Positions 4,332 to 19,084 of a stretch of 35,615 nt of DNA are shown here, in pieces. The stretch is taken from assembly GCA_021782315.1 (NCBI GenBank), contig JAJXVG010000011.1, forward strand, positions 1-35,615, written 5' to 3'. The notes under the pieces were generated by a model. That model saw only the letters and a program-made list of their open reading frames with translations, made no database searches and was not told the origin of the DNA. Position 1 is the first letter of the stretch; the number at the start of each line of letters is the position of its first letter. The stretch comes from Pseudomonadota bacterium (lineage in GTDB: Bacteria > Pseudomonadota > Gammaproteobacteria > Burkholderiales > Rhodocyclaceae). The translations under genes were made by a program, and so were the position numbers.

Positions 4332-6473
4332 CTACATTTCGATGAATAGCTCCGACGCATCGGCGGTGGACTGGAAACCGGGCGGCTTGGCGAACAGCTG
4401 AAAATCCTCGAGGCACTTCTTCAGGCGCTCGGCCGTTCCCATGAGACCCTTCGACAACAGGGCAGCCTGTTGGGCGATGCCGGTATTCCGCTCCACCAGT
4501 TGCGCCACCGACTCCATGCTGGTCGCCACGGATTCGCCGGCATTGGCTTGTTGCAGTGCCGCGCTGGCGATGTGCTGGGCCATGCTGTCGACCGCCTGGC
4601 TGGATTCGGTAATCTCGTCCAGGTCGGCGATGCCATCACGCATCTGAACGACGCCGAGATCGACTTCCCGGACGGCCTGCGCCATGGAGGCGACCGCGCT
4701 TGCCGCAATGGCCTGGATATTGGCCACCAGACCGCTGATGTCGCGCGTGCTGGCCGCCGTATTTTCCGAGAGCTTGCGGACCTCGGAGGCGACGACCGCG
4801 AAACCCCGCCCCGCCTCGCCAGCCCGCGCCGCCTCGATGGCAGCATTCAAGGCCAGCAAATTGGTTTGCTCGGCAATCTCTCTGATGGCGCTCGTCACAT
4901 CGCCGATGCGCTGGATGCTCTGGCTGAGATCGCCGATGATCCCGCTTGCCTCGTTGACGGTAAGCACCACCTTTTCGTTGGCATCCAGGCTGCGGCAAAG
5001 GGTTGCGCTGCAGGTACCGACCAATAGTTTGGATGCCTGGGCATGATCCGCCGCCTGTTGCGCGCTGTCGGCGACTTCACGAACGGCCTGGCTGAATTCC
5101 TCGGTACTGACGGCAACGCCTTCCACCTCCTGCTGCTGGTGTTGCGACTGCATCGTCACCATGAACATCTGGGCATCGAGGTCGGCGCTGCTTTGCAGTA
5201 GCGCCCTGACCGCAGCCTGGATGTTGTCCAGCATGACCTTGATGTTGGTCTGCATGACGGCGAGCGACGAGTAGATTTCGCCGAACTCGTCCCGACGGGA
5301 AATATCGACCGGATCGTAGAGGATACCTTCGGAGATTCGCAGGAAATAGCGGGTGATGTCGCGCAGCGGCTGCATGATCGCCCGGAGCATGAAGAGGACG
5401 AAGAACATCACGAAAAGTACGCTGCCGACCAGGACGGCGACAAACAACTGTTTGCTTCGTTCGTAGGCGACCGCACTGCTGCCCTGGTGCCTGCCCCTGT
5501 CCTGCTGGATGTATTCACCCAGCAACCTGGCGCTGTTCCTGGCATCGTCGTAGCGCGGGGAAAGCGTCGATTCCGTCAAACTCGCGGCAAGTTCGTAATG
5601 ACCGGCCGCCAGCGCCTCCCGGGCGGGCAACAGGCCTTTTTCCACGTAGGCATTTTCGGCCGTCTTGAAAGCTTCGAGCAAGCGCGCCTCTTCCGGACCG
5701 GGTCGGCGCTGCGCCAGGACGCCACGCAGATCCTTGATGGCCGCGATCTGGTTCGTCACGGCATCGAGATGCAGTGAAAGGGGATGCACATGCAAGCCGG
5801 CCGAATCGCCCAGGGGATTGTGCATGATACCCAGGGCAACATGCCTGTAAGCTTCGTTCATCAAGGTCAATGTTTTTTCGAGGGCCAGGGCCGGCTCCGT
5901 CTGCTCCCGATAGGCCTCGTTCAGCGTCGACTGGCTTTCCCTGAGCACGCTGAAACCGATGAAACCGGAGGCAACGATCAGCAGCAACACGACCAGTGAA
6001 AAGGCGATCAGGCGAAATTTCAGGGACTTGAACGGATTGGCCACTTGCCCCGGTAGCGGCTTCCTCGTTTCGTTCAGACGCCGATACAGGGCCTCCGCCT
6101 CCGCCACCTGCTGCCGCGACGCCGCCCCCCGTACCGACATGTAAGCGACGATCCGGTCGTCCTTGGTGACCGGCACCACATTGGCCTCGACCCAGTAATA
6201 ATCGCCCGATTTGGCCCGGTTCTTGACCACCCCGCGCCAAGCCGCCCCTTTCTTGACCGTGGCCCACAGATCGTTGAATGCCTGAGGCGGCATATCCGGG
6301 TGCCGCACGATATTGTGACTGCTGCCGACCAGTTCCTCGCGCGAGTAACCGCTGACATTGACGAACTCGTCGTTGGCGTAGGTAATGACGCCTTTCAGGT
6401 CGGTTTTGGAGACCAGCAAACGCTCCGGTGGCAGCAGAATCTCGGTCTCTGTGACGGGTAGATTGGTTTTCAT
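4332..6473 (-). CDS. PAS-domain methyl-accepting chemotaxis protein (Aer-like)
   Basis: 713-aa chemoreceptor. An N-terminal cytoplasmic PAS domain (about residues 20-115; landmarks [41 protein letters not shown]) resembles the Aer FAD-binding PAS. A transmembrane helix follows at about 154-176, then a ~170-residue segment that is probably periplasmic, and a second helix near 348-370 with a HAMP-like stretch. The signalling tip is canonical ([21 protein letters not shown]). It should signal to CheA/CheW, perhaps sensing redox or energy state. The C-terminus lacks an NWETF-type CheR tether. Unlike E. coli Aer, it has two membrane spans around an extra sensory segment, so it may read two inputs. 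Convergent with lnt. No chemotaxis genes are adjacent. Confidence 0.9.
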
Positions 6474-6573
6474 GGCTATCCGGCGAATGAGCGTGTCCGA
6501 TCAAGGGCGAAAATATACTACGCTTTCGGCATAAGGCGGCGGCAACACCGCCTTGCACCCTGCTTCTTCCGGA

Positions 6574-6606
6574 AAACGGCTCCCCGGTCTCTCCGAGACG
6601 CCGTTT
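6574..6606 (-). terminator. Hairpin downstream of the MBL-fold gene
   Basis: AAACGGC (6574-6580) pairs with GCCGTTT (6600-6606), and an inner stem GTCTC/GAGAC (6587-6591/6595-6599) closes a TCC loop. It lies just past the stop of the minus-strand gene ending at 6617. A run of T is weak, so termination is plausible rather than proven. Confidence 0.45.
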
Positions 6607-10667: not shown

Positions 10668-10814
10668 AGTGTTGCATCGCCGCAACAAATCCCGGCGCAC
10701 CGCACCGGGTCGAAACGGTCGAAACCGGCCGAAAAGGTGGTTTGCAGATCTTCGGAAAGTGCCGACGCCGAAGGCCTCTCTTGATCGCCGTCAAGAGTGC
10801 GGCACTACACTAGC
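10668..10814. repeat. Short palindrome-ended element, copy 2 (degenerate)
   Basis: Read on the minus strand from 10814, the first 28 bases match the left end of the element at 2660-2687 at 24 of 28 positions. All differences are C/T transitions. The far end, TGCAACACT (10676-10668), matches the other end of copy 1 for nine bases and then diverges, so its inverted repeat is decayed. Near the conserved end CTCTTGA/TCAAGAG (10798-10779 region) forms a seven-pair hairpin that could terminate msrA transcription. As with corC, the TAG stop of the adjacent gene lies in the GCTAG at the element edge. Confidence 0.65.
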
Positions 10815-11318
10815 CCGTTTTCAGGCGGTCGGCGAAAAGCTGCCGCATTTTCCGGGCCTTCGGCGCCACCACCGCCTGGCAATAGCCCTGTTCTGGATTG
10901 CGCCGGAAATACTGGTGATGATAAGGCTCGGCCACGAAGAAAGTCGTCGCCGGCACGACCTCGGTGACGATCGGCGAGGGCCATACCCCCTCCGCCCCGA
11001 GACGGGCGATGAGGCCTTGCGCCTCGGCGCGCTGGCCGGCATCGTGAACGAAGATGGCCGAGCGGTATTGCGTGCCTGTGTCGTGGCCCTGGCGATTCAA
11101 TGTTGTCGGATCGTGAATGGCAAAGAAGGCGACGAGCAGGGTGGCGAAATCAATGCGGGCCGGATCGAACTCGATTTGCACGACTTCGGCATGGCCGGTA
11201 TCGCCGCGACAGACCGCCTCGTAGGTCGGCGCCGGATGCTGCCCGCCCATGTAGCCGGGCAATACCGAAACGACACCGTCGAGTTGCTCGAACGCCGCCT
11301 CCAGGCACCAGAAACAGC
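10810..11318 (-). pseudogene. msrA: msrA 3' fragment (peptide methionine sulfoxide reductase A, split by the island)
   Basis: This is the C-terminal ~90% of MsrA, which reduces methionine-S-sulfoxide in proteins using thioredoxin. Reading into the island, the frame is stop-L-R-C-F-W-C-LEAAFEQLDGVV, then PGYMGGQHPAPTYEAVCRGDTGHAEVVQ. The active-site CFWC remains, but its preceding Gly codon, the N-terminus and the start codon are gone. Island sequence with an in-frame TAA (11323-11325) stands upstream. The missing start is intact 7.7 kb away at 19029-19084. Internal ATG codons (11262, or the Met of GYMGG) would produce a protein lacking the catalytic cysteine, so the fragment should be inactive unless the island excises. 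The TAG stop (10812-10810) lies in the short repeat element. Confidence 0.92.
11306..11318. repeat. attL core, 13-bp direct repeat
   Basis: CACCAGAAACAGC is repeated exactly at 19029-19041 and differs on both sides at the flanking base. Read on the minus strand it is GCTGTTTCTGGTG, the codons for the MsrA motif (G)CFWC. It marks the left recombination junction of the island. Confidence 0.9.
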
Positions 11319-11326
11319 GTAGTTAA

Positions 11327-11359
11327 CCGCCCCCTAGAGTGATGGTCTCTAGGGGGCGG
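11327..11359. terminator. Perfect 13-bp hairpin beside attL
   Basis: CCGCCCCCTAGAG (11327-11339) and its exact complement (11347-11359) enclose a seven-base loop, eight bases inside the att core. It is far more GC-rich than the rest of the island. It could insulate island and chromosome transcripts or take part in recombination. The following sequence has only a weak T-run on the plus strand. Confidence 0.6.
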
Positions 11360-11377
11360 CTTCCTTTCTGTAAGTTG

Positions 11378-11405
11378 TTGATTTCAGACATAAAAATCCT
11401 ATTTT
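11378..11405 (+). promoter_or_regulatory. Candidate integrase promoter
   Basis: TTGATT (11378-11383), a 16-base spacer and TATTTT (11400-11405) precede the integrase. Predicted start is near 11412, upstream of the TTCACAC-type repeats, so integrase binding there could repress its own gene. AT-richness makes chance matches likely. Confidence 0.33.
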
Positions 11406-11441
11406 TCAAGAAAAAGCTGCTTCTTTTTTCAACCGAAAAAA

Positions 11442-11489
11442 CTTCACACAAGCCACTTTCGAGCCTAAAATCTCACACAACTTCACGCA
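11442..11489. promoter_or_regulatory. Candidate integrase arm-type sites, left end
   Basis: Three direct copies of a 9-mer lie here: CTTCACACA (11442-11450), TCTCACACA (11471-11479) and CTTCACGCA (11481-11489). Related copies occur at the right end of the island (18943-18987). Lambda-like tyrosine integrases bind such arm sites with their N-terminal domain; the assignment is inferred from position and repetition. Confidence 0.5.
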
Positions 11490-11507
11490 CAGAAGAAGGT
11501 GGAAAAA

Positions 11508-12770
11508 GTGGCCCTACCCCGTGGAATCCAAGAGATCAGCAGGAAGAACAAGGACGGCACCCAGATCAAGAAGTATCGGGTGCAGATCAACAGGAAGAAC
11601 TTCAATCAGGATCGTCTGTTTGAGAGTTTAGACGAAGCTGTTGAGTTCCTGAATGCTTCGAAGTCAGCAACTGGACAGAAGCAAATTCACTTGCTGGAAG
11701 AACAGCAAAAAGTTGAACAGAAATTAATTCAGGATTTCATTACAAATCCAAATATTTCTGCATACATCAAAGCCTACATTGAAACCTATGTTGATCCAAG
11801 GTTTGCTGATTGCGATCCAAAGACAGCAGAAGGAAAAATTAAATTAAGGAATAAAGCTTCAATCATTGGTTTTTATAGCACTATTAAAAAAACCGTAATC
11901 AATGAGAGATCAGATGAAGAATTTCCAATTTCAAAACTATTCTTTAAAAATTATGAAGGCAAGAAATCTTTTGGAGAATTTAAGCCAAAACAAATCACCG
12001 AAATTGAAATCAATGAATACATAAAGGCACGCCGAAAAGCCGGCATTAAGCCAATCTCAATTCAACGAGAAATAACAGCAATCAGCAATTTATTCAACAA
12101 ACTAAAATATCTTGATCCTGATCTGAAATCTCTAAAGAATCCAACAAGGGACTATGACAGGGATTTGCTGAAAACTTCAGGTGGAATGATTTCTAAAAAG
12201 GTTCATCGAATCACAGAAGAAGATAAAAAGAAATTTTTTGAACTGCTGGACAACTACCCTAATCCTGAACTTGGCTGGATTTCAAAACTAATGCTTTTTA
12301 CAGCAATGCGTCGAACTGAGGCAGTATTGTTGAAATGGAGCCAAATTTTTGAAAAGCATATTTACCTTGAACATACAAAATCAGGTAAACCAAGGATTGT
12401 TTATCTCACACCTGAAGCAAAAGAATTGCTGAAATCTATTCCAAAGAAAGAAGGACAGGATCGGCTATTCACTTATACAGTGCTGGGTTACGATAGCAAT
12501 TTTTATCGCGTAATGGAAGACAATGGATTAAAACACATTAAAATTCACGGATTACGGAAAGAAGCAATTTCAGGTTTTATTGAAAGAATTGGAGCAAGCA
12601 ACAGCCTATTGATTTCTGAATTTTTAGGCTTTGCAAGTGTTAGGAAGATTGAGGAACACATTGAAACTCAAATTCCAGCAGGATTAAGCACTCAGGAAGA
12701 ATTGTTAAGATCGGTAGGACACAGCAACCCAGCAATCACGCAGAACCACTATTTCAGCTTAAAGAAGTAG
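11508..12770 (+). CDS. Tyrosine recombinase/integrase
   Basis: ~420-aa tyrosine recombinase. The N-terminus (RKNKDGTQIKKYRVQINRK) looks like an AP2/arm-binding domain and the middle like a SAM-like core-binding domain. The catalytic domain shows the first Arg in TAMRRTEAVLLKW, a Lys region near HTKSGKPRIVYL, H-x-x-R in IHGLRKEAI, the HS box VGHSNPAITQ and the nucleophile Tyr in QNHYFSLKK close to the C-terminus. The gap between the HGLR box and the final VGHS box is unusually long and holds a second, LGFASVRKIEEH-like degenerate copy of that box. Start: GTG at 11508 with AAGGTGGA in front; GTG at 11499 is also possible. It should integrate and excise the element at the 13-bp msrA core. No excisionase was identified. 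Confidence 0.92.
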   Translation: MALPRGIQEISRKNKDGTQIKKYRVQINRKNFNQDRLFESLDEAVEFLNASKSATGQKQIHLLEEQQKVEQKLIQDFITNPNISAYIKAYIETYVDPRFADCDPKTAEGKIKLRNKASIIGFYSTIKKTVINERSDEEFPISKLFFKNYEGKKSFGEFKPKQITEIEINEYIKARRKAGIKPISIQREITAISNLFNKLKYLDPDLKSLKNPTRDYDRDLLKTSGGMISKKVHRITEEDKKKFFELLDNYPNPELGWISKLMLFTAMRRTEAVLLKWSQIFEKHIYLEHTKSGKPRIVYLTPEAKELLKSIPKKEGQDRLFTYTVLGYDSNFYRVMEDNGLKHIKIHGLRKEAISGFIERIGASNSLLISEFLGFASVRKIEEHIETQIPAGLSTQEELLRSVGHSNPAITQNHYFSLKK

Positions 12771-12792
12771 TGTACAATCGGAGAAAATTTCT

Positions 12793-13161
12793 ATGGCAAA
12801 CAAAGGACCTAAAGTGACAACATTAGCTGACATTAAAGCTCAGATGGCTGAATTGCAAAAGCAACACGATGCAATTGTTGCCAATGAAAAAGCAACCATC
12901 ATTGCAGAAATGAAGGAAAAAATTTCTGACTATGGCATTACAGCTAATGAACTTGGGTTCCAGTTATCAGGACCTACGACCACAGTTAAACCTCCGAAAT
13001 CTGCACCCACTGGTAAAACTAAAGCAGAAGCTAAATATCGTGGTCCAAACAATGAAGAATGGGCCGGTGGCATTGGTGCCCGTCCTAAGTGGGTTAAAGC
13101 TATTCTTGAAGCTGGTGGAAACATTGAAGACTACCGAATCAAGAAAGAAGAAACGGTTTAA
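12793..13161 (+). CDS. H-NS-family nucleoid protein
   Basis: 122-aa protein with an N-terminal helical, coiled-coil-like oligomerisation segment (LADIKAQMAELQKQHDAIV) and a linker rich in Pro, Lys and Thr. The C-terminal H-NS DNA-binding module is YRGPNNEEWAGGIGARPKWVKAIL; the minor-groove loop GGIGARPKW corresponds to the W-x-G-x-G-x-x-P-x-W signature of betaproteobacterial H-NS proteins. Such proteins bind AT-rich DNA and silence foreign genes. Carried by an AT-rich element, it probably quiets the element's own genes or spares the host's H-NS pool. GGAGA lies eight bases before the ATG, and TACAAT (12773-12778) is a possible -10. A rho-independent terminator follows directly. Confidence 0.88.
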   Translation: MANKGPKVTTLADIKAQMAELQKQHDAIVANEKATIIAEMKEKISDYGITANELGFQLSGPTTTVKPPKSAPTGKTKAEAKYRGPNNEEWAGGIGARPKWVKAILEAGGNIEDYRIKKEETV

Positions 13162-13183
13162 CCACAACCCTACCCCAATAAAC

Positions 13184-13208
13184 AAGAGCCAGTTTCTGGC
13201 TCTTTTCA
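13184..13208 (+). terminator. Rho-independent terminator after the hns-like gene
   Basis: AAGAGCCAG (13184-13192) pairs with CTGGCTCTT (13196-13204) around a three-base loop and runs into TTTT. The sequence is typical and the placement is right, 23 bases after the stop. Confidence 0.85.
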
Positions 13209-13221
13209 TTCGAGCTTAAAA

Positions 13222-13533
13222 ATGAAGTTAAAAGAGTTTATTAACGAAGAAAATCATTTGTGCAATCTTACTGAAGATCAAATTGAAGAAATTTTTGATC
13301 TGGACGAAGTAAAAGCACTGGACAACAATGAGTTTGAAAAACAGCGGGTTTTTTGGTTGTCTCAATATATGGTTGGCAATGTAAGCGAACCATTTGAAGA
13401 CATTAAAAAGCTTGATCCAGCCGATCAATACAGAGCTTTTGAAACTTGGATTGATTTGGTTAAAGACGTGGATACGCTGAAGCCAATGATGAAATCAATT
13501 CTTCAGGATTTCATTAAAAATAAATCTGTTTAA
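13222..13533 (+). CDS. 103-aa acidic hypothetical protein
   Basis: A small acidic helical protein (MKLKEFINEENHLCNLTEDQIEE, then LDPADQYRAFETWIDLVKDVDTLKPMMKSIL) without a signal peptide or membrane helix. I do not recognise the family. The first ~25 residues resemble a short helix-turn motif, but this is not enough to call DNA binding. It lies between two hairpins (13184-13208 and 13539-13558), so it may be its own transcription unit, and just before the restriction-modification pair. A role as a regulator or anti-restriction accessory is possible but unsupported. No clear Shine-Dalgarno was seen. Confidence 0.6.
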   Translation: MKLKEFINEENHLCNLTEDQIEEIFDLDEVKALDNNEFEKQRVFWLSQYMVGNVSEPFEDIKKLDPADQYRAFETWIDLVKDVDTLKPMMKSILQDFIKNKSV

Positions 13534-13538
13534 TGCAA

Positions 13539-13558
13539 AACGGGGACCAGTCCCCGTT
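13539..13558 (+). terminator. Hairpin after the 103-aa gene
   Basis: AACGGGGAC and GTCCCCGTT form a perfect nine-pair stem with a two-base apex, directly after the stop at 13533. No T-run follows, so it may be a rho-dependent or processing structure. Confidence 0.55.
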
Positions 13559-13567
13559 AGACCATTC

Positions 13568-13599
13568 ATTTAATTGAATAAAAATCCATTCAATTAAAT
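13568..13599. promoter_or_regulatory. 12-bp inverted repeat upstream of the restriction gene (operator candidate)
   Basis: ATTTAATTGAAT (13568-13579) and its exact complement ATTCAATTAAAT (13588-13599) are separated by eight bases and lie 34 bases before the restriction gene. Symmetry and position suit an operator controlling R-M expression. No dedicated controller (C) gene is adjacent, so the binder is unknown; the 103-aa or H-NS-like protein is possible. Confidence 0.5.
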
Positions 13600-13632
13600 A
13601 AACGGCCTCAAATTTAATTCACTGGAAATCAA

Positions 13633-14277
13633 ATGCCAACAAATCCATTTGACAGAAGTAAGCACGTTTACAAAAACGATGCATTTTCAGAACTGGTTAA
13701 GGATGCCGTTCGTTTTTTCAATGGAACCCCAGTTCATACACTACCACCACCAGAACGATTTTTAGGAACTGGTGTTTATGCGATCTATTACACTGGAAAC
13801 AATCCACTTTACCAGAAGTATGCTCAATTAAACAGATTGTCTTACGACTATCCTATTTATGTTGGGAAAGCTGTTCCTAAAGGCTGGAGACAGTCACGAA
13901 ATCACGATAAAGCAGATAGTCAATCTAATGAGCTTTATACACGATTGAAAGAACACAGCAGAAGTATTGCAACGGGTGCTGACATAAATCTTGAGCACTT
14001 TATGTGTAGATTTGTGATCTTTGAAGAAGAAGGCTCAGATATGATTTCAACCATTGAAGCCTCATTAATAAAAATAAACAGACCATTGTGGAACTCTGCT
14101 TTAGACGGTTTTGGAAATCACGATCCAGGTTCTGGACGATATGAGCAAGCGAAATCAGATTGGGATGTAATTCATTCTGGTAGATCGTGGGCCGATAGAT
14201 TGAATGGCACACCAAAACAAAAGCAAGCTATAATTTCAAATATAAATAACCACTTGCAAACACTCGGAAACAAATGA
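13633..14277 (+). CDS. Eco29kI-type type II restriction endonuclease (GIY-YIG)
   Basis: 214-aa GIY-YIG-superfamily endonuclease. The signature halves are GVYAIYY (Tyr49) and YPIYVGKA (Tyr76). The other catalytic residues fall at Arg104, His108, Glu142 (TIEASLI) and Asn154 (PLWN). These positions coincide with those I recall for R.Eco29kI, which cuts CCGC^GG, so close homology and probably the same specificity are expected. The conserved GFGNHDPGSGR segment follows. The stop overlaps the methyltransferase start (ATGA), so the pair is co-translated, restriction gene first. I saw no CCGCGG inside the island, whereas the GC-rich chromosome flanks contain several (for example near 2005), so host DNA needs the methylase. 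Confidence 0.9.
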   Translation: MPTNPFDRSKHVYKNDAFSELVKDAVRFFNGTPVHTLPPPERFLGTGVYAIYYTGNNPLYQKYAQLNRLSYDYPIYVGKAVPKGWRQSRNHDKADSQSNELYTRLKEHSRSIATGADINLEHFMCRFVIFEEEGSDMISTIEASLIKINRPLWNSALDGFGNHDPGSGRYEQAKSDWDVIHSGRSWADRLNGTPKQKQAIISNINNHLQTLGNK

Positions 14278-15389
14278 AATCATTGGAAATTTTTTCTGGT
14301 GCTGGTGGATTAGCTAAAGGACTGGAATTATCTGGATTCGAACATTCATCTTTCGTTGAGTTCAACAAAGATGCCTGCAAATCTTTAAGATTAAATTTTG
14401 AACCAGAAATTGTTTATGAAGGCGATATTGCAGAATTTGACCTAAATTCTCTATCAGAAATTGAAATTGTTGCAGGTGGTCCTCCGTGCCAACCATTCTC
14501 TTTAGGTGGGAAACACAAGGCACACCAAGACAAAAGGGATATGTTCCCTTATGCAATCCGTGCAATTGAAAAGCTACAACCAAAAGCTTTTATTTTTGAA
14601 AATGTAAAAGGTCTTTTACGTCAAACATTTTCAGAATATTTTTCATACATCATTCTTCGGCTGACTTACCCAGATTGTGAAATCCTTGATGATGAGGATT
14701 GGGGACAGCATTTAGAACGTCTGCAAAAACTAACGAAAAAAACATACACAGGCACACGCTACAACGTCCAATACAAGCTTTTAAACGCTGCTGACTATGG
14801 AGTTCCACAAGTTCGGGAACGAGTGGTCATAGTGGGGATTAGAGCCGATTTAGAGAAGGTTTGGACCTACCCCAAAGCCACACATACTAAAGATCGTTTG
14901 TTGTGGGACAAGCACGTTACTGGTGAATACTGGAGCAGGCACAACCTACCAGATCAACGGAATGAAGCCATTGGAGCCACTTTAAAGAGTAGGTATGGCA
15001 TCTTTCCACCAGAAGAGGAAGCTTGGCAAACCGTGAGGGATTGCCTGAAAGATGTTCCCCACCCTGCACAAGCTCACAACATACAGGACCACATCTTTAG
15101 AGATGGTGCAAGAACCTACCCAGGTCACACAGGCAGTGAGATAGACGAACCATCAAAGACCATTAAAGCTGGTGGTCATGGTGTGCCAGGTGGTGAAAAT
15201 ATGATTAGGTATGAAGACGGTTCAGTCCGTTACTTTACAGTTTATGAAGGAAAATTAATTCAAACATTCCCTAAAGACTACCTAATTACAGGCTCTTGGG
15301 GTGAAGCAATGAGACAGATTGGAAATGCTGTTCCAGTTAAATTAGCTAATGCAATTGGAAAACATTTAATGCAAGTATTGACAAATTAA
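14274..15389 (+). CDS. DNA cytosine-5 methyltransferase (M.Eco29kI-type)
   Basis: 371-aa C5-cytosine methyltransferase. Motif I is EIFSGAGGLAKG (AdoMet binding). Motif IV is GGPPCQPFS, with catalytic Cys72. Motif VI is FENVKG, motif VIII is QVRERVVIVGIR, and motif X is RQIGNAVPVKLANAIGKHL. The variable target-recognition region lies between about residues 195 and 320. It should protect the site cut by the partner endonuclease, by inference CCGCGG. It starts on the ATGA overlap with the restriction gene. A strong terminator lies 62 bases downstream. The start ATG has no strong Shine-Dalgarno, so synthesis probably depends on coupling. Confidence 0.93.
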   Translation: MKSLEIFSGAGGLAKGLELSGFEHSSFVEFNKDACKSLRLNFEPEIVYEGDIAEFDLNSLSEIEIVAGGPPCQPFSLGGKHKAHQDKRDMFPYAIRAIEKLQPKAFIFENVKGLLRQTFSEYFSYIILRLTYPDCEILDDEDWGQHLERLQKLTKKTYTGTRYNVQYKLLNAADYGVPQVRERVVIVGIRADLEKVWTYPKATHTKDRLLWDKHVTGEYWSRHNLPDQRNEAIGATLKSRYGIFPPEEEAWQTVRDCLKDVPHPAQAHNIQDHIFRDGARTYPGHTGSEIDEPSKTIKAGGHGVPGGENMIRYEDGSVRYFTVYEGKLIQTFPKDYLITGSWGEAMRQIGNAVPVKLANAIGKHLMQVLTN

Positions 15390-15404
15390 AATTAAGCCGT
15401 AAGA

Positions 15405-15474
15405 TATAATTATCTGAAGTCTATTCAATTCACGTTGATAAGAAGCGGGAAAGCCAGCGCAAGCTGGCTTTTTT
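15405..15474 (+). ncRNA. Possible short RNA between a TATAAT box and a terminator
   Basis: A perfect TATAAT (15405-15410) stands just ahead of a strong intrinsic terminator. A start near 15417 would give a transcript of ~58 bases. The only TTGACA (15378-15383) is 21 bases from the -10, longer than optimal. The RNA would contain most of the left arm of the 26-base inverted repeat. This is a weak prediction. Confidence 0.3.
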
Positions 15475-15567
15475 GTTTTCTATTTGAGAACTTGACAAAT
15501 TTGAAGTAATTTCTTAAAACTAAATTCAAGTGCTTTATGCGTCAACTGAAAATGAATAGACTTCAGA
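15413..15567. repeat. Long inverted repeat flanking the terminator
   Basis: TCTGAAGTCTATTCA (15413-15427) and its exact complement TGAATAGACTTCAGA (15553-15567) are the cores of two 26-base arms (15413-15438 and 15542-15567) that match at 22 of 26 positions. They enclose ~103 bases that include the terminator at 15451-15474. The two copies point toward each other. They could be protein-binding sites or pair as RNA. Confidence 0.6.
15451..15474 (+). terminator. Rho-independent terminator after the methyltransferase
   Basis: AAGCCAGC (15451-15458), loop GCAA and GCTGGCTT (15463-15470) are followed by a T-run. A GNRA-type loop and U-tract make this a textbook terminator. Confidence 0.88.
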
Positions 15568-16081
15568 AATCAATTCAAATTCCTTTCCCGATTGGAGCAC
15601 CCGAACTACCAGAAAGCCGAAGTAGAAGGCGGGGAACAAAACAAAACTGACTACCATAGTCCCCTTAAGCAAAACTGGATAAACGTTCTTAAAGCTACAA
15701 CAATGAGGTTTTAACAAAGTAGCAACGAAGCTGAATCTGGACCGTGTTAATGGGTTTTTTAAGAACCTGAACCAGAGAATGAAGTAACTTAAAAATAACT
15801 TCTGCCGGTAACTGGGCATACAGCCTGAACGGAATAGCCTAAAGGTGACTGATACAGTCCCTAAAGGGTAAGCTATGCCGATTCAGGCATAGCACTTTCT
15901 TAAGACCTGTTTTAAAGATCGAAGATCAATACAGCCTTATGGCTGTCTAAAGATCGAAAAATAAGAATAAAAATCAGTAAAGATAAAAAGAACTTCCTAA
16001 TGGAAGTCCAAAAAGCGAAGCTATGAACTGCCGTAGGCAGGTTTTATGTTAATAAAACAAAAAATGACAGCGGGCCTTAAC
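15568..16081. other. Hairpin-rich noncoding stretch of the island
   Basis: I see no convincing gene in this ~510-bp stretch; a 94-codon minus-strand frame lacks features of a protein. Short stems are frequent: CCTAAAGG (15838-15845), CCC/GGG around TAAA (15859-15868), GCTATGCC/GGCATAGC (15872-15893), ACAGCC/GGCTGT around TTAT (15931-15946), ACTTCC/GGAAGT around TAAT (15992-16007) and CTGCC/GGCAG around GTA (16028-16040). TAAAGATCGAA is repeated directly (15913-15923 and 15948-15958). AACTTGACAAAT occurs just before the stretch (15489-15500) and at its end (16079-16090). It may be a structured RNA, a long leader or an origin-like region. Confidence 0.5.
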
Positions 16082-16109
16082 TTGACAAATAATCCATAAC
16101 AACTATGAA
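16082..16109 (+). promoter_or_regulatory. Promoter of the 168-aa gene
   Basis: Perfect -35 TTGACA (16082-16087), a 16-base spacer and TATGAA (16104-16109). Start near 16116 gives a very short leader with GGAGG (16120-16124) before the ATG at 16129. Confidence 0.6.
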
Positions 16110-16128
16110 TATAAAAAATGGAGGATTT

Positions 16129-16635
16129 ATGGGATTATTTGGAGAAAGAAAAAAAATTCAGAACGTACAAATTTCACTGCAACAAAAGAGAGAATTATTT
16201 AAAAGAATAATTCTGAATGTGTACACTGAGGAGAAAAACAAAGGATCTGACGAAGCATTAGAATGCGCATTATTTGTTGCACTAAATATTGTCTACAGAG
16301 AGTCAGATAGGCTCTCAAACAATCCATTTTATTTAGCAACGAAAAATGACAATATTACCTCAAGCTTATTTATGGAAGCAGGAGTCAGCCCCTTCTACAC
16401 AATGCTTAATCATTTAGAGCCTGATTCTATAGTTGAATTCTTTATTGACTACTTAATGCTAATTGATGGAGCATTAGATACAAACAAATATTACAACCTA
16501 AAGAAAGTAATCAACTTAATTTGCTTAAAAGAGGCTCCGTCTTCTTGGGCGATTGCTAAAACTTATGAACATGTTTGGTTTAAGCTTCTTGATCCTGAAA
16601 TAGTTGAACACCTAATAGATGGCATGTACAAGTAA
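16129..16635 (+). CDS. 168-aa hypothetical protein
   Basis: An unrecognised, mostly helical soluble protein (MGLFGERKKIQN, then LQQKRELFKRIILNVYTEE, ECALFVALNIVYRESDRLSNNPFYLATK, VEFFIDYLMLIDGALD). No membrane helix or catalytic motif is visible. The frame opens at 16105, but GGAGG at 16120-16124 lies four bases before ATG 16129, and the -10 box overlaps the earlier ATG, so 16129 is the start. It has its own promoter and terminator. Its place between the R-M pair and the mobilisation genes suggests an element-maintenance or defence accessory role, but the sequence does not prove one. Confidence 0.65.
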   Translation: MGLFGERKKIQNVQISLQQKRELFKRIILNVYTEEKNKGSDEALECALFVALNIVYRESDRLSNNPFYLATKNDNITSSLFMEAGVSPFYTMLNHLEPDSIVEFFIDYLMLIDGALDTNKYYNLKKVINLICLKEAPSSWAIAKTYEHVWFKLLDPEIVEHLIDGMYK

Positions 16636-16645
16636 ATCAATATTC

Positions 16646-16669
16646 AAACCGCCTTCGGGTGGTTTTTTT
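16646..16669. terminator. Terminator between convergent genes
   Basis: AAACCGCC (16646-16653), tetraloop TTCG and GGTGGTTT (16658-16665) form a stem with one G-T pair, followed by a T-run. It ends the 168-aa gene. Its right edge touches the stop of the convergent 58-aa gene, so it may serve both directions. Confidence 0.8.
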
Positions 16670-16844
16670 ATGCCTGATCATTTTTATTTTTGTATTCTTT
16701 AACTACTTTTTTCATGTAGGAATTAAGAACGAAACTTGGAGATTTTTTGTACGTCTCACAAAGTTTAGAAAAATCTTCGAACAGTTCTGCCTCGAAATAC
16801 ATTGTTCTTTTCTTCTTTAATATTTCAGTTTTTTTGTTTGCCAT
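16668..16844 (-). CDS. 58-aa ribbon-helix-helix (CopG-like) regulator
   Basis: A short gene found by reading the minus strand. The protein begins MANKKTEILKKKRTMYF, continues EAELFEDFSKLCETYKKS and PSFVLNSYMKKVVKEYK, and ends NKNDQA. The layout is that of a minimal ribbon-helix-helix repressor: a basic arm, a short beta strand (RTMYFEAE), helix A (LFEDFSKLCETYKK), a turn at Ser-Pro-Ser and helix B (FVLNSYMKKVVKEY). ATG at 16844 has GGAGG (16857-16853) eight bases upstream, inside one of three upstream repeats, which suggests autoregulation. It is divergent from the mobilisation genes, with the candidate oriT between them, so it may control transfer or copy functions, like relaxosome RHH proteins. 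A toxin partner was not found. Confidence 0.75.
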   Translation of the reverse strand: MANKKTEILKKKRTMYFEAELFEDFSKLCETYKKSPSFVLNSYMKKVVKEYKNKNDQA

Positions 16845-16847
16845 AAC

Positions 16848-16929
16848 CTATACCTCCAATTTGATTTTCAAACTACACCTCCAATATAGATTAAATAATT
16901 TTTTGGAAACGTCAATCTATACCTCCAAT
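16848..16929 (-). repeat. Three direct repeats upstream of the RHH gene (operator candidates)
   Basis: ATTGGAGGTRTAG (minus strand) occurs at 16860-16848, 16885-16873 and 16929-16917. The copy nearest the gene contains the GGAGG used as its ribosome-binding site, so a bound protein could block translation start or transcription. Flanking bases are also partly conserved (A or T before, TT after). Confidence 0.65.
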
Positions 16930-16934
16930 ATCAA

Positions 16935-17092
16935 AACTTGATTTTGGTTTTGTTTTTGGTTTAATGAATAGAGAAAAGACAAATTCGAAGCCAGGGGAAT
17001 CATTCGCTGTGCGGAATGAATAAATATGTGGGGTCCCCCCACTCCCCGATTTGTCATACGCGACTAATAACAATAAAAAGAAAGGTCCAAAA
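16935..17092. other. Candidate origin of transfer (oriT)
   Basis: This gap between the divergent RHH gene and mobC is where small mobilizable elements usually keep oriT. It holds an imperfect hairpin CATTCGC-TGT-GC(G)GAATG (17001-17018), a perfect stem GTGGGG/CCCCAC with apex TCC (17028-17042), and an unusually GC-rich block continuing ACTCCCCGATTTGTCATACG in otherwise AT-rich DNA. A nick site cannot be assigned by eye. Confidence 0.5.
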
Positions 17093-17491
17093 ATGGAAGT
17101 TAAAAAGAAAAAATCAACTGGTCAATCTGGCTCTGATGGCAACGAAGAATTGAGAACAAAAAGAATTGAGTTCTATGTATCACCATCTGAATTTTCAAAA
17201 ATTTCTCTCTTTTATGAGCAGTCACCACACAAGACAATGGGAAATTTTTGTAGAGAAAAAATGTTGTCCAAGCCAGGTGCCACAACTGACAAAAAAGAAA
17301 TTTTGTCTGAAATTTCAAAAAGTATTTATCAGCAATCAAAGATAAGCAACAATATTAACCAGATTGCCAAAAAAGTTAATTCAATAAAAAAGGACTACCC
17401 TGAATTATTGACTGAACTTAAATCAGAACTTGATGAACTAAAGCAACTAAACAAAGTAATGCTTTCCAAGTTCAAGAAAGTTGGAGGTTGA
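17093..17491 (+). CDS. MobC-like relaxosome accessory protein
   Basis: 132-aa basic protein. A Lys-rich N-terminus is followed by a ribbon-helix-helix-like segment (RTKRIEFYVSPSEFSKISLFYEQS, then TMGNFCREKMLS) and a long C-terminal coiled-coil-like helix (ISKSIYQQSKISNNINQIAKKVNSIKK). This is the MobC/bacterial mobilisation protein pattern, and it sits directly upstream of the relaxase. It would bind oriT and help melt or position DNA for nicking. The frame also opens at TTG 17051, but ATG 17093 has AAAGAAAGG in front. It ends one base before the relaxase ATG, and its last codons carry the relaxase Shine-Dalgarno GGAGG, so the two are coupled. Confidence 0.8.
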   Translation: MEVKKKKSTGQSGSDGNEELRTKRIEFYVSPSEFSKISLFYEQSPHKTMGNFCREKMLSKPGATTDKKEILSEISKSIYQQSKISNNINQIAKKVNSIKKDYPELLTELKSELDELKQLNKVMLSKFKKVGG

Positions 17492-17492
17492 A

Positions 17493-18836
17493 ATGATTGT
17501 TCAATTCTTCAACCACGGCACAGGAAAGGCTGATTCTGCCGTTAGATATTTATTGCAAGACAATGATTCAAACGGAAATCCAAGAAATCCTAAGCCAGAG
17601 ATTTTTTATGGTGATCCTGATTTGACAAAACTTTTAATTGATAACAATCCAAGAAAATTCAAATATAGTTCTGGTGTTATTGCTTTTCGTGATGATGAAA
17701 AGCCTACTGAGGCACAGCTAAATAAAATTATCAAAGATTTTTATTTGACATTTGCACCAGGTCTTGGGCCAGATAGATTGAATATGCTTATTGTTAGGCA
17801 CGAAGACAAAGGAAATACAGAGCTTCATCTTTTAATTCCAATGATTGACGCCAAAACTCAAAAGCAATTCAACATCACCCCACCAGGTGAAGCTTCAAAA
17901 CAAATGTTCAGAGATTTTCAAGCAATGTGGAATCACAAGCTTGGTTATGCTCAGGTTGTGGAAGATCCATTAAAAGCAGAGTTTTCTAATTTTGATAAAA
18001 AAGTTCCAGCAGGAAAAACAAGCAACACAATAAAAAATCGTTTAAGTGTTGAAATTCCAAAGCTAATCAGAAAAGGGAAAATAAATAACAGAAATGAGTT
18101 AATTGGATTTCTTGAGGAAAGAGGTTGCACCATTACCAGAAAGGGAATGGATTACATTTCAGTAAAATTTCCAAATCAAAAGAAGGCAACCAGATTAACA
18201 GGCCCTGTTTTCAGTAAAAATTCTGACTACAAAAAGCTTGTCAATGAAGCTGACGCGGTTCTAAACAACACATTTCTAAACAGCTTTCAAGTATCAAGAA
18301 TAAAAGTCAGACTTGAGGGCTCCACTGAATACAGAAGAAATTTTATTGAAAATCGTTTTAATAAGCCAAAAAGAATCAGAAAAGGCACAACAATTAAACC
18401 TAAGCTTCCAAAGCAAAAGCTAACAAGTGCCACAGTTCAAGACATTTCTTCCATCAATAAAAATCAACCAGAAACCAATTCTGGAAAAATTTTAAGTAAT
18501 GTTGATCGTGGAATTTCTAATAAATTAAGAAATCCAACCAGCGGAGCTAAAGGATCGCAGTATGCGAAAAGCCCCGTTTCCGAAAGGAAAAAGAGTTCTG
18601 GTGCAGTTCAAGGCGTAGCCAAATCTTTAGCCAGCCTACAAATGCAGATTGATTCAGCACAAGCTGATTTAGCTAATGCTCAAACTTTGGAAGATAGGAT
18701 TAAAGCCGAAGCAAAACTAAATTCTTTAATTTTGCAGAAAAACAAGCTTTTAGCTGAAATTGAACAAGCCAGAATTGCAGAACTCAACCAGGAACAGGCA
18801 CCAGCCACCACACCACGAAGAAGGCCCAGACCTTGA
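17493..18836 (+). CDS. mobA: MobA/VirD2-like relaxase
   Basis: 447-aa relaxase. The N-terminal ~200 residues carry the nuclease domain: a candidate nucleophile Tyr19 in GKADSAVRYLLQ, a conserved block SSGVIAFRDDEKPTEAQL, and the metal-site motif RHEDKGNTELHLLIPMI, in which the usual three-His cluster is replaced by an H-E-(D)-type arrangement. WNHKLGYAQVVEDP follows. The C-terminal third is Lys- and Pro-rich and ends in a coiled coil (SLQMQIDSAQADLANAQTLEDRIKAEAKL). It would nick oriT and lead one strand through a helper's type IV machinery. TTG 17481 is in frame, but ATG 17493 has GGAGG at the right distance. No primase domain is visible. The exact MOB family needs an HMM search. Confidence 0.82.
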   Translation: MIVQFFNHGTGKADSAVRYLLQDNDSNGNPRNPKPEIFYGDPDLTKLLIDNNPRKFKYSSGVIAFRDDEKPTEAQLNKIIKDFYLTFAPGLGPDRLNMLIVRHEDKGNTELHLLIPMIDAKTQKQFNITPPGEASKQMFRDFQAMWNHKLGYAQVVEDPLKAEFSNFDKKVPAGKTSNTIKNRLSVEIPKLIRKGKINNRNELIGFLEERGCTITRKGMDYISVKFPNQKKATRLTGPVFSKNSDYKKLVNEADAVLNNTFLNSFQVSRIKVRLEGSTEYRRNFIENRFNKPKRIRKGTTIKPKLPKQKLTSATVQDISSINKNQPETNSGKILSNVDRGISNKLRNPTSGAKGSQYAKSPVSERKKSSGAVQGVAKSLASLQMQIDSAQADLANAQTLEDRIKAEAKLNSLILQKNKLLAEIEQARIAELNQEQAPATTPRRRPRP

Positions 18837-18844
18837 CGCCACAG

Positions 18845-18867
18845 AACGGCCATAGAGCCGTTTTTTT
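18845..18867 (+). terminator. Terminator after the relaxase
   Basis: AACGGC (18845-18850) pairs with GCCGTT (18857-18862) around CATAGA, followed by a run of T. It lies nine bases after the relaxase stop. Confidence 0.82.
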
Positions 18868-18942
18868 GTGCTGGTTGATAGCTACCCTTACCCAAGCACC
18901 TTGAAGAGCTTGTGGCGTGTTCTACGGGGTGGTACGGTGGTA

Positions 18943-18987
18943 TTTCACACAGAGTCACGCATTTCTATGTGAAATTTTCTTCACACT
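18943..18987. promoter_or_regulatory. Candidate integrase arm-type sites, right end
   Basis: TTTCACACA (18943-18951), AGTCACGCA (18953-18961) and CTTCACACT (18979-18987) resemble the left-end set at 11442-11489. An inverted copy TGTGAAAT lies at 18968-18975. In both ends a TTCACAC-type copy is followed closely by a TCACGCA-type copy. Confidence 0.5.
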
Positions 18988-18997
18988 GAGGAAAAAC

Positions 18998-19022
18998 AAC
19001 AGCTTAAGCTGTGTAAGCTGTT
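18998..19022. repeat. 9-bp inverted repeat beside attR
   Basis: AACAGCTTA (18998-19006) and TAAGCTGTT (19014-19022) are exact complements, six bases inside the att core. They overlap the palindrome AGCTTAAGCT (19001-19010). The placement mirrors the hairpin beside attL. Confidence 0.6.
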
Positions 19023-19084
19023 AGGTGACACCAGAAACAGCCACCGGCCAGGGTCACCGTTTGGGTCGTCGTCGTTGCCGTCAT
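19004..19084 (-). pseudogene. msrA: msrA 5' fragment, ends in island sequence
   Basis: This is the start of msrA cut off by the island. ATG at 19084, with GGAGGAG just upstream, encodes MTATTTTQTVTLAGGCFWC, the conserved MsrA N-terminus including the complete active-site motif. It then runs into island DNA as HLTAYTA before TAA at 19006-19004. The native part ends inside the 13-bp core. The promoter and Shine-Dalgarno of msrA therefore remain here while the body of the gene is at 10810-11318. Precise excision would rejoin them in frame. A transcript from the msrA promoter would now enter the island antisense to the relaxase. Confidence 0.92.
19029..19041. repeat. attR core, 13-bp direct repeat
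   Basis: This is the exact copy of CACCAGAAACAGC found at 11306-11318. It lies within the GCFWC codons of the 5' msrA fragment. Confidence 0.9.

What the first reader, a model, noticed from the sequence alone, without database searches (positions are those of the whole stretch)
11306..19041. A 7.7-kb mobilizable element integrates into the catalytic GCFWC codons of msrA
The island is bounded by a perfect 13-bp repeat whose complement encodes the MsrA active-site motif. The 5' end of msrA (start, Shine-Dalgarno, GGCFWC) lies at 19029-19084 and the rest at 10810-11318. Joining them across one core copy restores the frame exactly. Integration therefore knocks out a methionine sulfoxide repair enzyme and excision would restore it: a possible reversible switch of oxidative-stress repair. 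Using the most conserved codons of a housekeeping gene as attB would give a broad host range. Most islands of this kind use tRNA genes or the 3' ends of genes and do not break the gene.
Basis: partly seen in the sequence, partly recalled or inferred. Interest (0 to 1): 0.87.

Follow-up and report, generated by a model that had tools for sequence, protein, structure and literature searches.

The report
Mobile island that re-caps msrA gene
A small mobile DNA island has jumped into the start of the bacterial gene msrA; the island brings its own replacement gene start, and a sister island leaves msrA whole that way, but in this copy the replacement start contains a stop signal and the gene looks broken.

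Summary
A low-GC island of about 7.7 kb (37% against 64% in the flanks) lies between two perfect 13-bp repeats, and joining the flanks over one repeat gives an uninterrupted msrA. Eight of 30 same-genus msrA loci examined align straight across that junction. The island has a tyrosine integrase, MobC, an MbeA-like relaxase and an Eco29kI-type restriction-modification pair: it looks like an integrative and mobilizable element.

The interpretation needs changing. Beside the integrase, and divergent from it, the island carries its own msrA start (MSEINNLQKGSRPLETITLGGG). In a sister element (integrase 96% identical) in another MAG, the equivalent patch runs in frame into CFWC and msrA is intact. 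The element seems built to replace the 5' end of msrA, not to knock it out: the strategy published for a dusA island and, as that paper reports, for SXT at prfC. In the window copy, nine extra bases with an in-frame TAA separate patch and active site, so msrA is probably inactive here. It is the only MsrA found in an 89%-complete assembly. A third element sits in a cytochrome c peroxidase gene, so targeting is not strictly msrA-specific. A reversible repair switch is not supported, though not excluded for this copy.

The parts
10810..11318 (-). 3' part of host msrA (from CFWC to stop), open, no common start codon before the active-site Cys
   Evidence: PF01625 E=5.1e-58 (10813-11316)
11306..11318 (.). 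left copy of the 13-bp att core (attL)
11319..11327 (.). nine extra bases between core and patch; in the msrA sense they include an in-frame TAA (11325-11323). Absent from the sister element L022
11323..11391 (-). element-borne replacement msrA 5' end (patch), MSEINNLQKGSRPLETITLGGG then stop, with AGGA a few bases before the ATG
11327..11359 (.). perfect 13-bp-stem hairpin (7-nt loop) inside the patch; also flagged terminator-like on the + strand; role unknown
   Evidence: (DNA fold of 11306-11400, z = -5.0)
11443..11471 (+). sigma-70-like promoter match upstream of the integrase (10 of 12); none found on the minus strand for the patch
   Evidence: 1 found, 0.1 expected
11499..12770 (+). tyrosine integrase, 423 aa
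   Evidence: PF00589 E=1.3e-9; match to HP1 integrase 1aih E=3.7e-8; relatives
12793..13161 (+). H-NS-like C-terminal domain protein
   Evidence: PF00816 E=2.3e-6
13222..13533 (+). 103-aa protein of unknown function
   Evidence: no family hit
13633..14277 (+). Eco29kI-type restriction endonuclease
   Evidence: PF09517 E=9e-71, PADLOC REase_II
14274..15389 (+). C5-cytosine DNA methyltransferase of the same pair
   Evidence: PF00145 E=6.5e-64
16105..16635 (+). 176-aa protein of unknown function in a variable cargo slot
   Evidence: only a sub-threshold SirC_C match, 17.9 against a cut-off of 27; none
17093..17491 (+). MobC relaxosome protein
   Evidence: PF05713 E=7.8e-10
17493..18836 (+). relaxase, MbeA/ColE1-like
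   Evidence: PF03432 E=3.9e-8; NF047848 relax_MbeA_E1 E=2.9e-24, 86 bits against a cut-off of 500
19029..19041 (.). right copy of the 13-bp att core (attR)
19004..19084 (-). displaced native 5' end of msrA: start and GGCFWC, then 7 residues read from the island and a stop

Best explanation
An integrative and mobilizable element whose tyrosine integrase recombines at the codons for the MsrA active site, near the 5' end of the gene. Shown: the insertion, the repeats, the uninterrupted site in relatives, and that the element end next to the integrase is an alternative msrA 5' end (ATG, N-terminus, GGG) in the frame of the host's 3' part. Inferred: integration swaps the native start for the element's start, so that the host keeps MsrA (as in sister element L022), while the relaxase and MobC let a helper conjugation system carry the excised circle. 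In the window copy nine extra bases with a stop codon lie exactly between patch and core, so msrA is most likely inactive as assembled. I take this as a lesion of the patch (mutation, imprecise earlier excision or assembly error), not the design of the element.
For: The sister element L022 sits at the same codons in another MAG, and its fused frame is a complete MsrA with ATG, patch and CFWC. The last nine patch codons before the Cys differ between window and L022 at 6 positions, all third-codon and synonymous (read by eye). Between window and L023, 57 of 58 patch positions match against 84 of 117 just upstream (gaps counted as mismatches), Fisher p = 8.6e-6. The uninterrupted locus is found in 8 of 30 relative loci. 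The only MsrA match in G000 is this one, and it is the only match listed with a stop inside. [quoted passage not shown]
Against: Only one sister element shows an intact patch; L023 breaks off inside the patch and lies in another gene. No minus-strand promoter was found for the patch in the window, and L022 has no obvious Shine-Dalgarno by eye. The 57 of 58 conservation could reflect the hairpin or recent exchange rather than coding, and the one difference changes an amino acid (T to I). Before the last nine codons, window and L022 patches differ by several amino acids and a five-codon gap. The window copy itself does not encode an intact MsrA.
Confidence: 0.85

Rival explanations
1. The nine extra bases are an assembly or consensus error, and msrA in the real organism is intact with the element's N-terminus, as in L022. 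(This is a sub-case of the best explanation and differs only in the state of this copy.)
For: The window is a contig of a draft assembly of 291 contigs. The extra bases adjoin a 13-bp-stem hairpin, a hard stretch for sequencing, and the L023 contig ends in the same hairpin. The rest of both frames is clean.
Against: No reads could be seen. A clean nine-base insertion is not, to my knowledge, a common assembly error.
Confidence: 0.25
2. One reading: the island is a reversible off-switch for msrA. Insertion breaks the gene, excision mends it, and this is used or selected by the host.
For: In this copy both msrA frames are interrupted, and joining the flanks gives an open gene. No second MsrA was found in the assembly.
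Against: The element carries a matching msrA start, and in L022 the gene is open after insertion. Nothing here shows excision or regulation. The assembly is 89% complete, so a second msrA may be missing.
Confidence: 0.05
3. The patch-like stretch is only a chance or attP-arm resemblance, and the element simply disrupts msrA.
For: In the window the frame is closed by TAA, and the stretch doubles as a hairpin.
Against: LETITLGGG is kept in window and L022 with six synonymous changes and no other; ATG and frame are kept; L022 gives a full-length MsrA. The PF01625 match runs on into the patch in the window.
Confidence: 0.05

Closest known systems
dusA-specific integrative elements, IMEVchUSA3 (PMC8409611; abstract lines and passages seen)
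   Same: Mobilizable element with an integrase, inserted within the 5' end of a housekeeping gene, supplying a new N-terminus in frame
   Different: Different target gene; mobilized by IncC plasmids with SGI1-like regulators, not looked for here; new promoter shown there by lacZ fusion, not shown here; in the window copy the supplied N-terminus is interrupted
SXT ICE at prfC (as stated in PMC8409611)
   Different: A self-transmissible ICE (the name says so; details recalled); no conjugation apparatus seen here
Prophage PhiM247 of Lactobacillus crispatus (PMC10763512; passages seen)
   Same: Its attL-attB includes 96 nt at the 5' end of msrA
   Different: A siphovirus prophage in Lactobacillus; homology of the integrases and position of its crossover were not tested
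ColE1/MbeA-type mobilization modules on small plasmids
   Same: Relaxase family, with MobC annotated under many of the listed matches
   Different: Under 60% identity in all 3537 records with a match; here on a chromosomal element

Membership tests
Integrative and mobilizable element (IME) | site-specific integrase of its own | tested here: met
   PF00589; activity not tested
Integrative and mobilizable element (IME) | relaxase module but no conjugation apparatus | tested here: met
   MobC and relaxase, and no other transfer family among the eight island ORFs scanned; shorter ORFs were not scanned
Integrative and mobilizable element (IME) | flanking att repeats and an uninterrupted site in relatives | tested here: met
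Integrative and mobilizable element (IME) | excision and mobilization by a helper | not testable with these tools
   needs cells or reads
Elements that re-supply the 5' end of their target gene (dusA IMEs, SXT) | element end encodes a new start codon and N-terminus in frame with the target | tested here: met
   met in L022; in the window the frame is the same but holds a stop
Elements that re-supply the 5' end of their target gene (dusA IMEs, SXT) | target gene open after integration in this copy | tested here: not met
   TAA at 11325-11323 in the window
Elements that re-supply the 5' end of their target gene (dusA IMEs, SXT) | new promoter drives the target gene | tested here: inconclusive
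   no minus-strand sigma-70 match at 11300-11560; expression not testable
dusA integrase family | integrase homology to the dusA family | not tested
   no dusA integrase was compared
Eco29kI-type II restriction-modification | Eco29kI endonuclease next to a C5 methyltransferase | tested here: met

The most novel reading that the evidence does not exclude
In this lineage the patch has become a conditional one: the long hairpin and the short stop-bearing spacer make MsrA expression depend on whether the element is integrated (off) or excised (on), a site-specific switch of methionine sulfoxide repair in a host with a single MsrA.
Probability: 0.04. Interest if true: 0.75.

Novelty: new member of a known kind. 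Interest (0 to 1): 0.4.

Why it matters
It adds msrA to the 5'-end targets for which a mobilizable element carries a replacement gene start, with the catalytic codons themselves at the crossover. It also shows both outcomes, an intact re-capped gene (L022) and an interrupted one (window), and an off-target insertion with no fitting patch (L023). This makes the cost of a faulty patch or a wrong site testable.

Tried and rejected
A search for more members beyond the two relatives found nothing close. Of 100 genomes (own included, 59 others of the genus), 46 have some integrase match at E <= 0.001; own aside, the best covers residues 25-420 at 29% identity, and shorter pieces reach 37%. At E <= 1e-20 the only match was the own genome among 369 of the class, the L022 genome itself among 243 searched around it, and the L023 genome itself among 125 searched around it. 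In viral contigs, 136 stretches matched a pattern for the integrase and 19 for the relaxase, with no relative confirmed. Plasmids and phages gave only matches under 60% identity (2166 and 32 records for the integrase; 3537 and 2 for the relaxase). The relaxase search over 398 genomes of the phylum gave 13 genomes with a match at 1e-15, own included, others at most 40% identity; not followed up.

I tried to find the missing left junction of L023 through contig-end overlap in its genome; apart from the contig itself only weak short matches came back. A pattern search for an uninterrupted patch-core junction in viral contigs found nothing. An apparent integrase beside a relative's msrA (L064) proved to be a chemotaxis-receptor-like frame, because I had taken the longest frame of L018 as query; named by eye and rejected. 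That test was therefore crude: it does not show that no relative has another integrase at msrA. In one search, two of the 30 loci (L064, L067) lack the GGCFWC pattern and were dropped from the core count; they carry AAGCFWC.

Literature on msrA as a site: six searches listed 2, 4, 3, 3, 0 and 0 papers. I read passages of two of these: PMC10763512 (5' end of msrA as phage site) and PMC8115907 (prophage between yesN and msrA); of the others I saw listings only. Searches (one paper, PMC8409611, passages read; 14 papers on pilin and mobilizable islands, listing only) were on other points. These searches cover an open-licence library and do not show that msrA elements are unpublished.

Full report
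OBSERVATION. The two 13-bp repeats CACCAGAAACAGC are at 11306-11318 and 19029-19041. Between them lies DNA of 37.1% GC in a contig otherwise 64.1% GC. The left flank holds the 3' part of msrA on the minus strand (PF01625, 5.1e-58). The right flank holds its start, MTATTTTQTVTLAGGCFWC, which then reads seven residues into the island and stops. Joining the flanks across one repeat gives a single open MsrA. In the genus, 54 of 60 genomes searched, own included, have an MsrA match, and the window's is the only listed match with a stop inside. Of the 30 best loci fetched, one per genome, 8 align without a break across the junction; 7 of them continue into the right-hand neighbour and one ends with its contig. 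A ninth is collinear in pieces. The other 21 have another arrangement or too little similarity to tell. The right-hand neighbour looks like glyQ, a name I recall from the sequence; no call named it. So the island is real and sits in msrA.

CONTENT. Eight island ORFs were scanned with Pfam: tyrosine integrase (PF00589), an H-NS C-terminal domain protein, an unknown, an Eco29kI-type endonuclease with a C5 methyltransferase, a second unknown, MobC and a relaxase. NCBIfam places the relaxase nearest MbeA of ColE1, well below the curated cut-off. No conjugation apparatus was seen among them. This is the anatomy of an integrative and mobilizable element.

THE POINT MISSED. The whole-genome MsrA search matched 10876-11343 with one TAA inside, so the match runs past the core into the island. 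The island end reads, on the minus strand from 11391, MSEINNLQKGSRPLETITLGGG, stop, then LR and CFWC of the host gene. The island therefore carries an msrA start of its own, next to and divergent from the integrase.

RELATIVES. The genome scan with the integrase gave 62 pattern stretches and two true relatives: L022 (JAJZHK010000034.1, 96% identical) and L023 (JAQTXT010000036.1, 92%). L022 also lies in msrA at the same codons; outside the element it matches the window only over 270 bases of msrA at 66% (the fetched 21 kb compared), so it is another host. There the element end reads MNENNDLKLETITLGGG and runs in frame into CFWC; the ORF is a complete MsrA (PF01625 1.2e-56, TIGR00401 above its cut-off). 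The native start of that host, METTILGGGCFWC, is left stranded at the other end. Window and L022 patches differ at six positions in the last nine codons, all third positions and synonymous (read by eye), as expected of coding sequence; the first codons are less alike, with amino-acid changes and a gap. L023 has almost the same patch as the window as far as its contig reaches: 57 of 58 positions match against 84 of 117 upstream, gaps counted as mismatches, p = 8.6e-6; the one difference changes an amino acid. Its right end lies in a di-haem cytochrome c peroxidase gene (PF03150) at CACCAGTAACACC. That gene's frame meets a stop in the element, and its two best matches to solved peroxidases begin at residues 15 and 16 of the chain, so the start of the protein and, I infer, its export signal are cut off. 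Its genome bin, labelled Rickettsiales, shows no MsrA match, but it is a small draft (1.5 Mb held) and the contig may be mis-binned.

MECHANISM. Most likely the integrase recombines at the GCFWC codons and the element's end replaces the lost 5' end of msrA. This is what was shown with lacZ fusions for IMEVchUSA3 at dusA, and stated there for SXT at prfC (PMC8409611, abstract lines and passages). Here expression is inferred: the one promoter-like match in 11300-11560 faces the integrase, not the patch. In the window the patch is followed by nine extra bases with a stop, exactly at the border of the repeat, so no complete MsrA is predicted from either start. MsrB is present elsewhere. No second MsrA was found, in an assembly of 89.3% completeness. 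Whether the nine bases are a mutation, a trace of imprecise excision from an earlier site, or an assembly error next to a 13-bp-stem hairpin cannot be told here.

Target and insertion: right. Knock-out: true of this copy as assembled, not of the element's apparent design. Switch: no evidence. Strict msrA specificity: contradicted by L023. Broad host range: plausible. Among 28 msrA loci compared (30 fetched, two without the motif dropped), 9 have the 13-bp core exactly and 11 have the variant with G at the ninth base.

NOVELTY. 5'-end targets with a supplied N-terminus are known (PMC8409611), and the 5' end of msrA is a known phage attachment site in Lactobacillus crispatus (PMC10763512, passages). 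A mobilizable element that re-caps msrA was not found in the six searches listed under Tried and rejected, which cover only an open-licence library. I rate it a new member of a known kind.

Noticed in passing
L022:14515-14952; L023:5260-5802 and 6142-6576; window 16105-16635: Sister elements carry type IV pilin genes (PF00114, PF08805) in the slot where the window has an unknown 176-aa protein: pilins as cargo of a small mobilizable island.
   Followed up: partly
window 13633-15389; L023:2130-4186: The restriction-modification slot is exchanged between sister elements: Eco29kI type in the window and, by sequence, L022; Bpu10I-type endonuclease with another C5 methyltransferase in L023.
   Followed up: partly
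L023:9014-9925: Element inserted in a di-haem cytochrome c peroxidase gene; the start of the gene is cut off and the element end meets it with a stop.
   Followed up: partly
window 11327-11359: Perfect 13-bp-stem hairpin inside the patch, shared with L023 as far as its contig reaches, not seen by eye in L022; could be a terminator, an att feature or a chance product.
   Followed up: partly
window 15413-15567: 26-nt inverted repeat pair (85%, 103 nt apart) downstream of the methyltransferase, in a stretch conserved in L022 and L023.
   Followed up: no
window 12793-13161: H-NS-like protein directly downstream of the integrase, with counterparts in L022 and L023; may silence the AT-rich island.
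   Followed up: no
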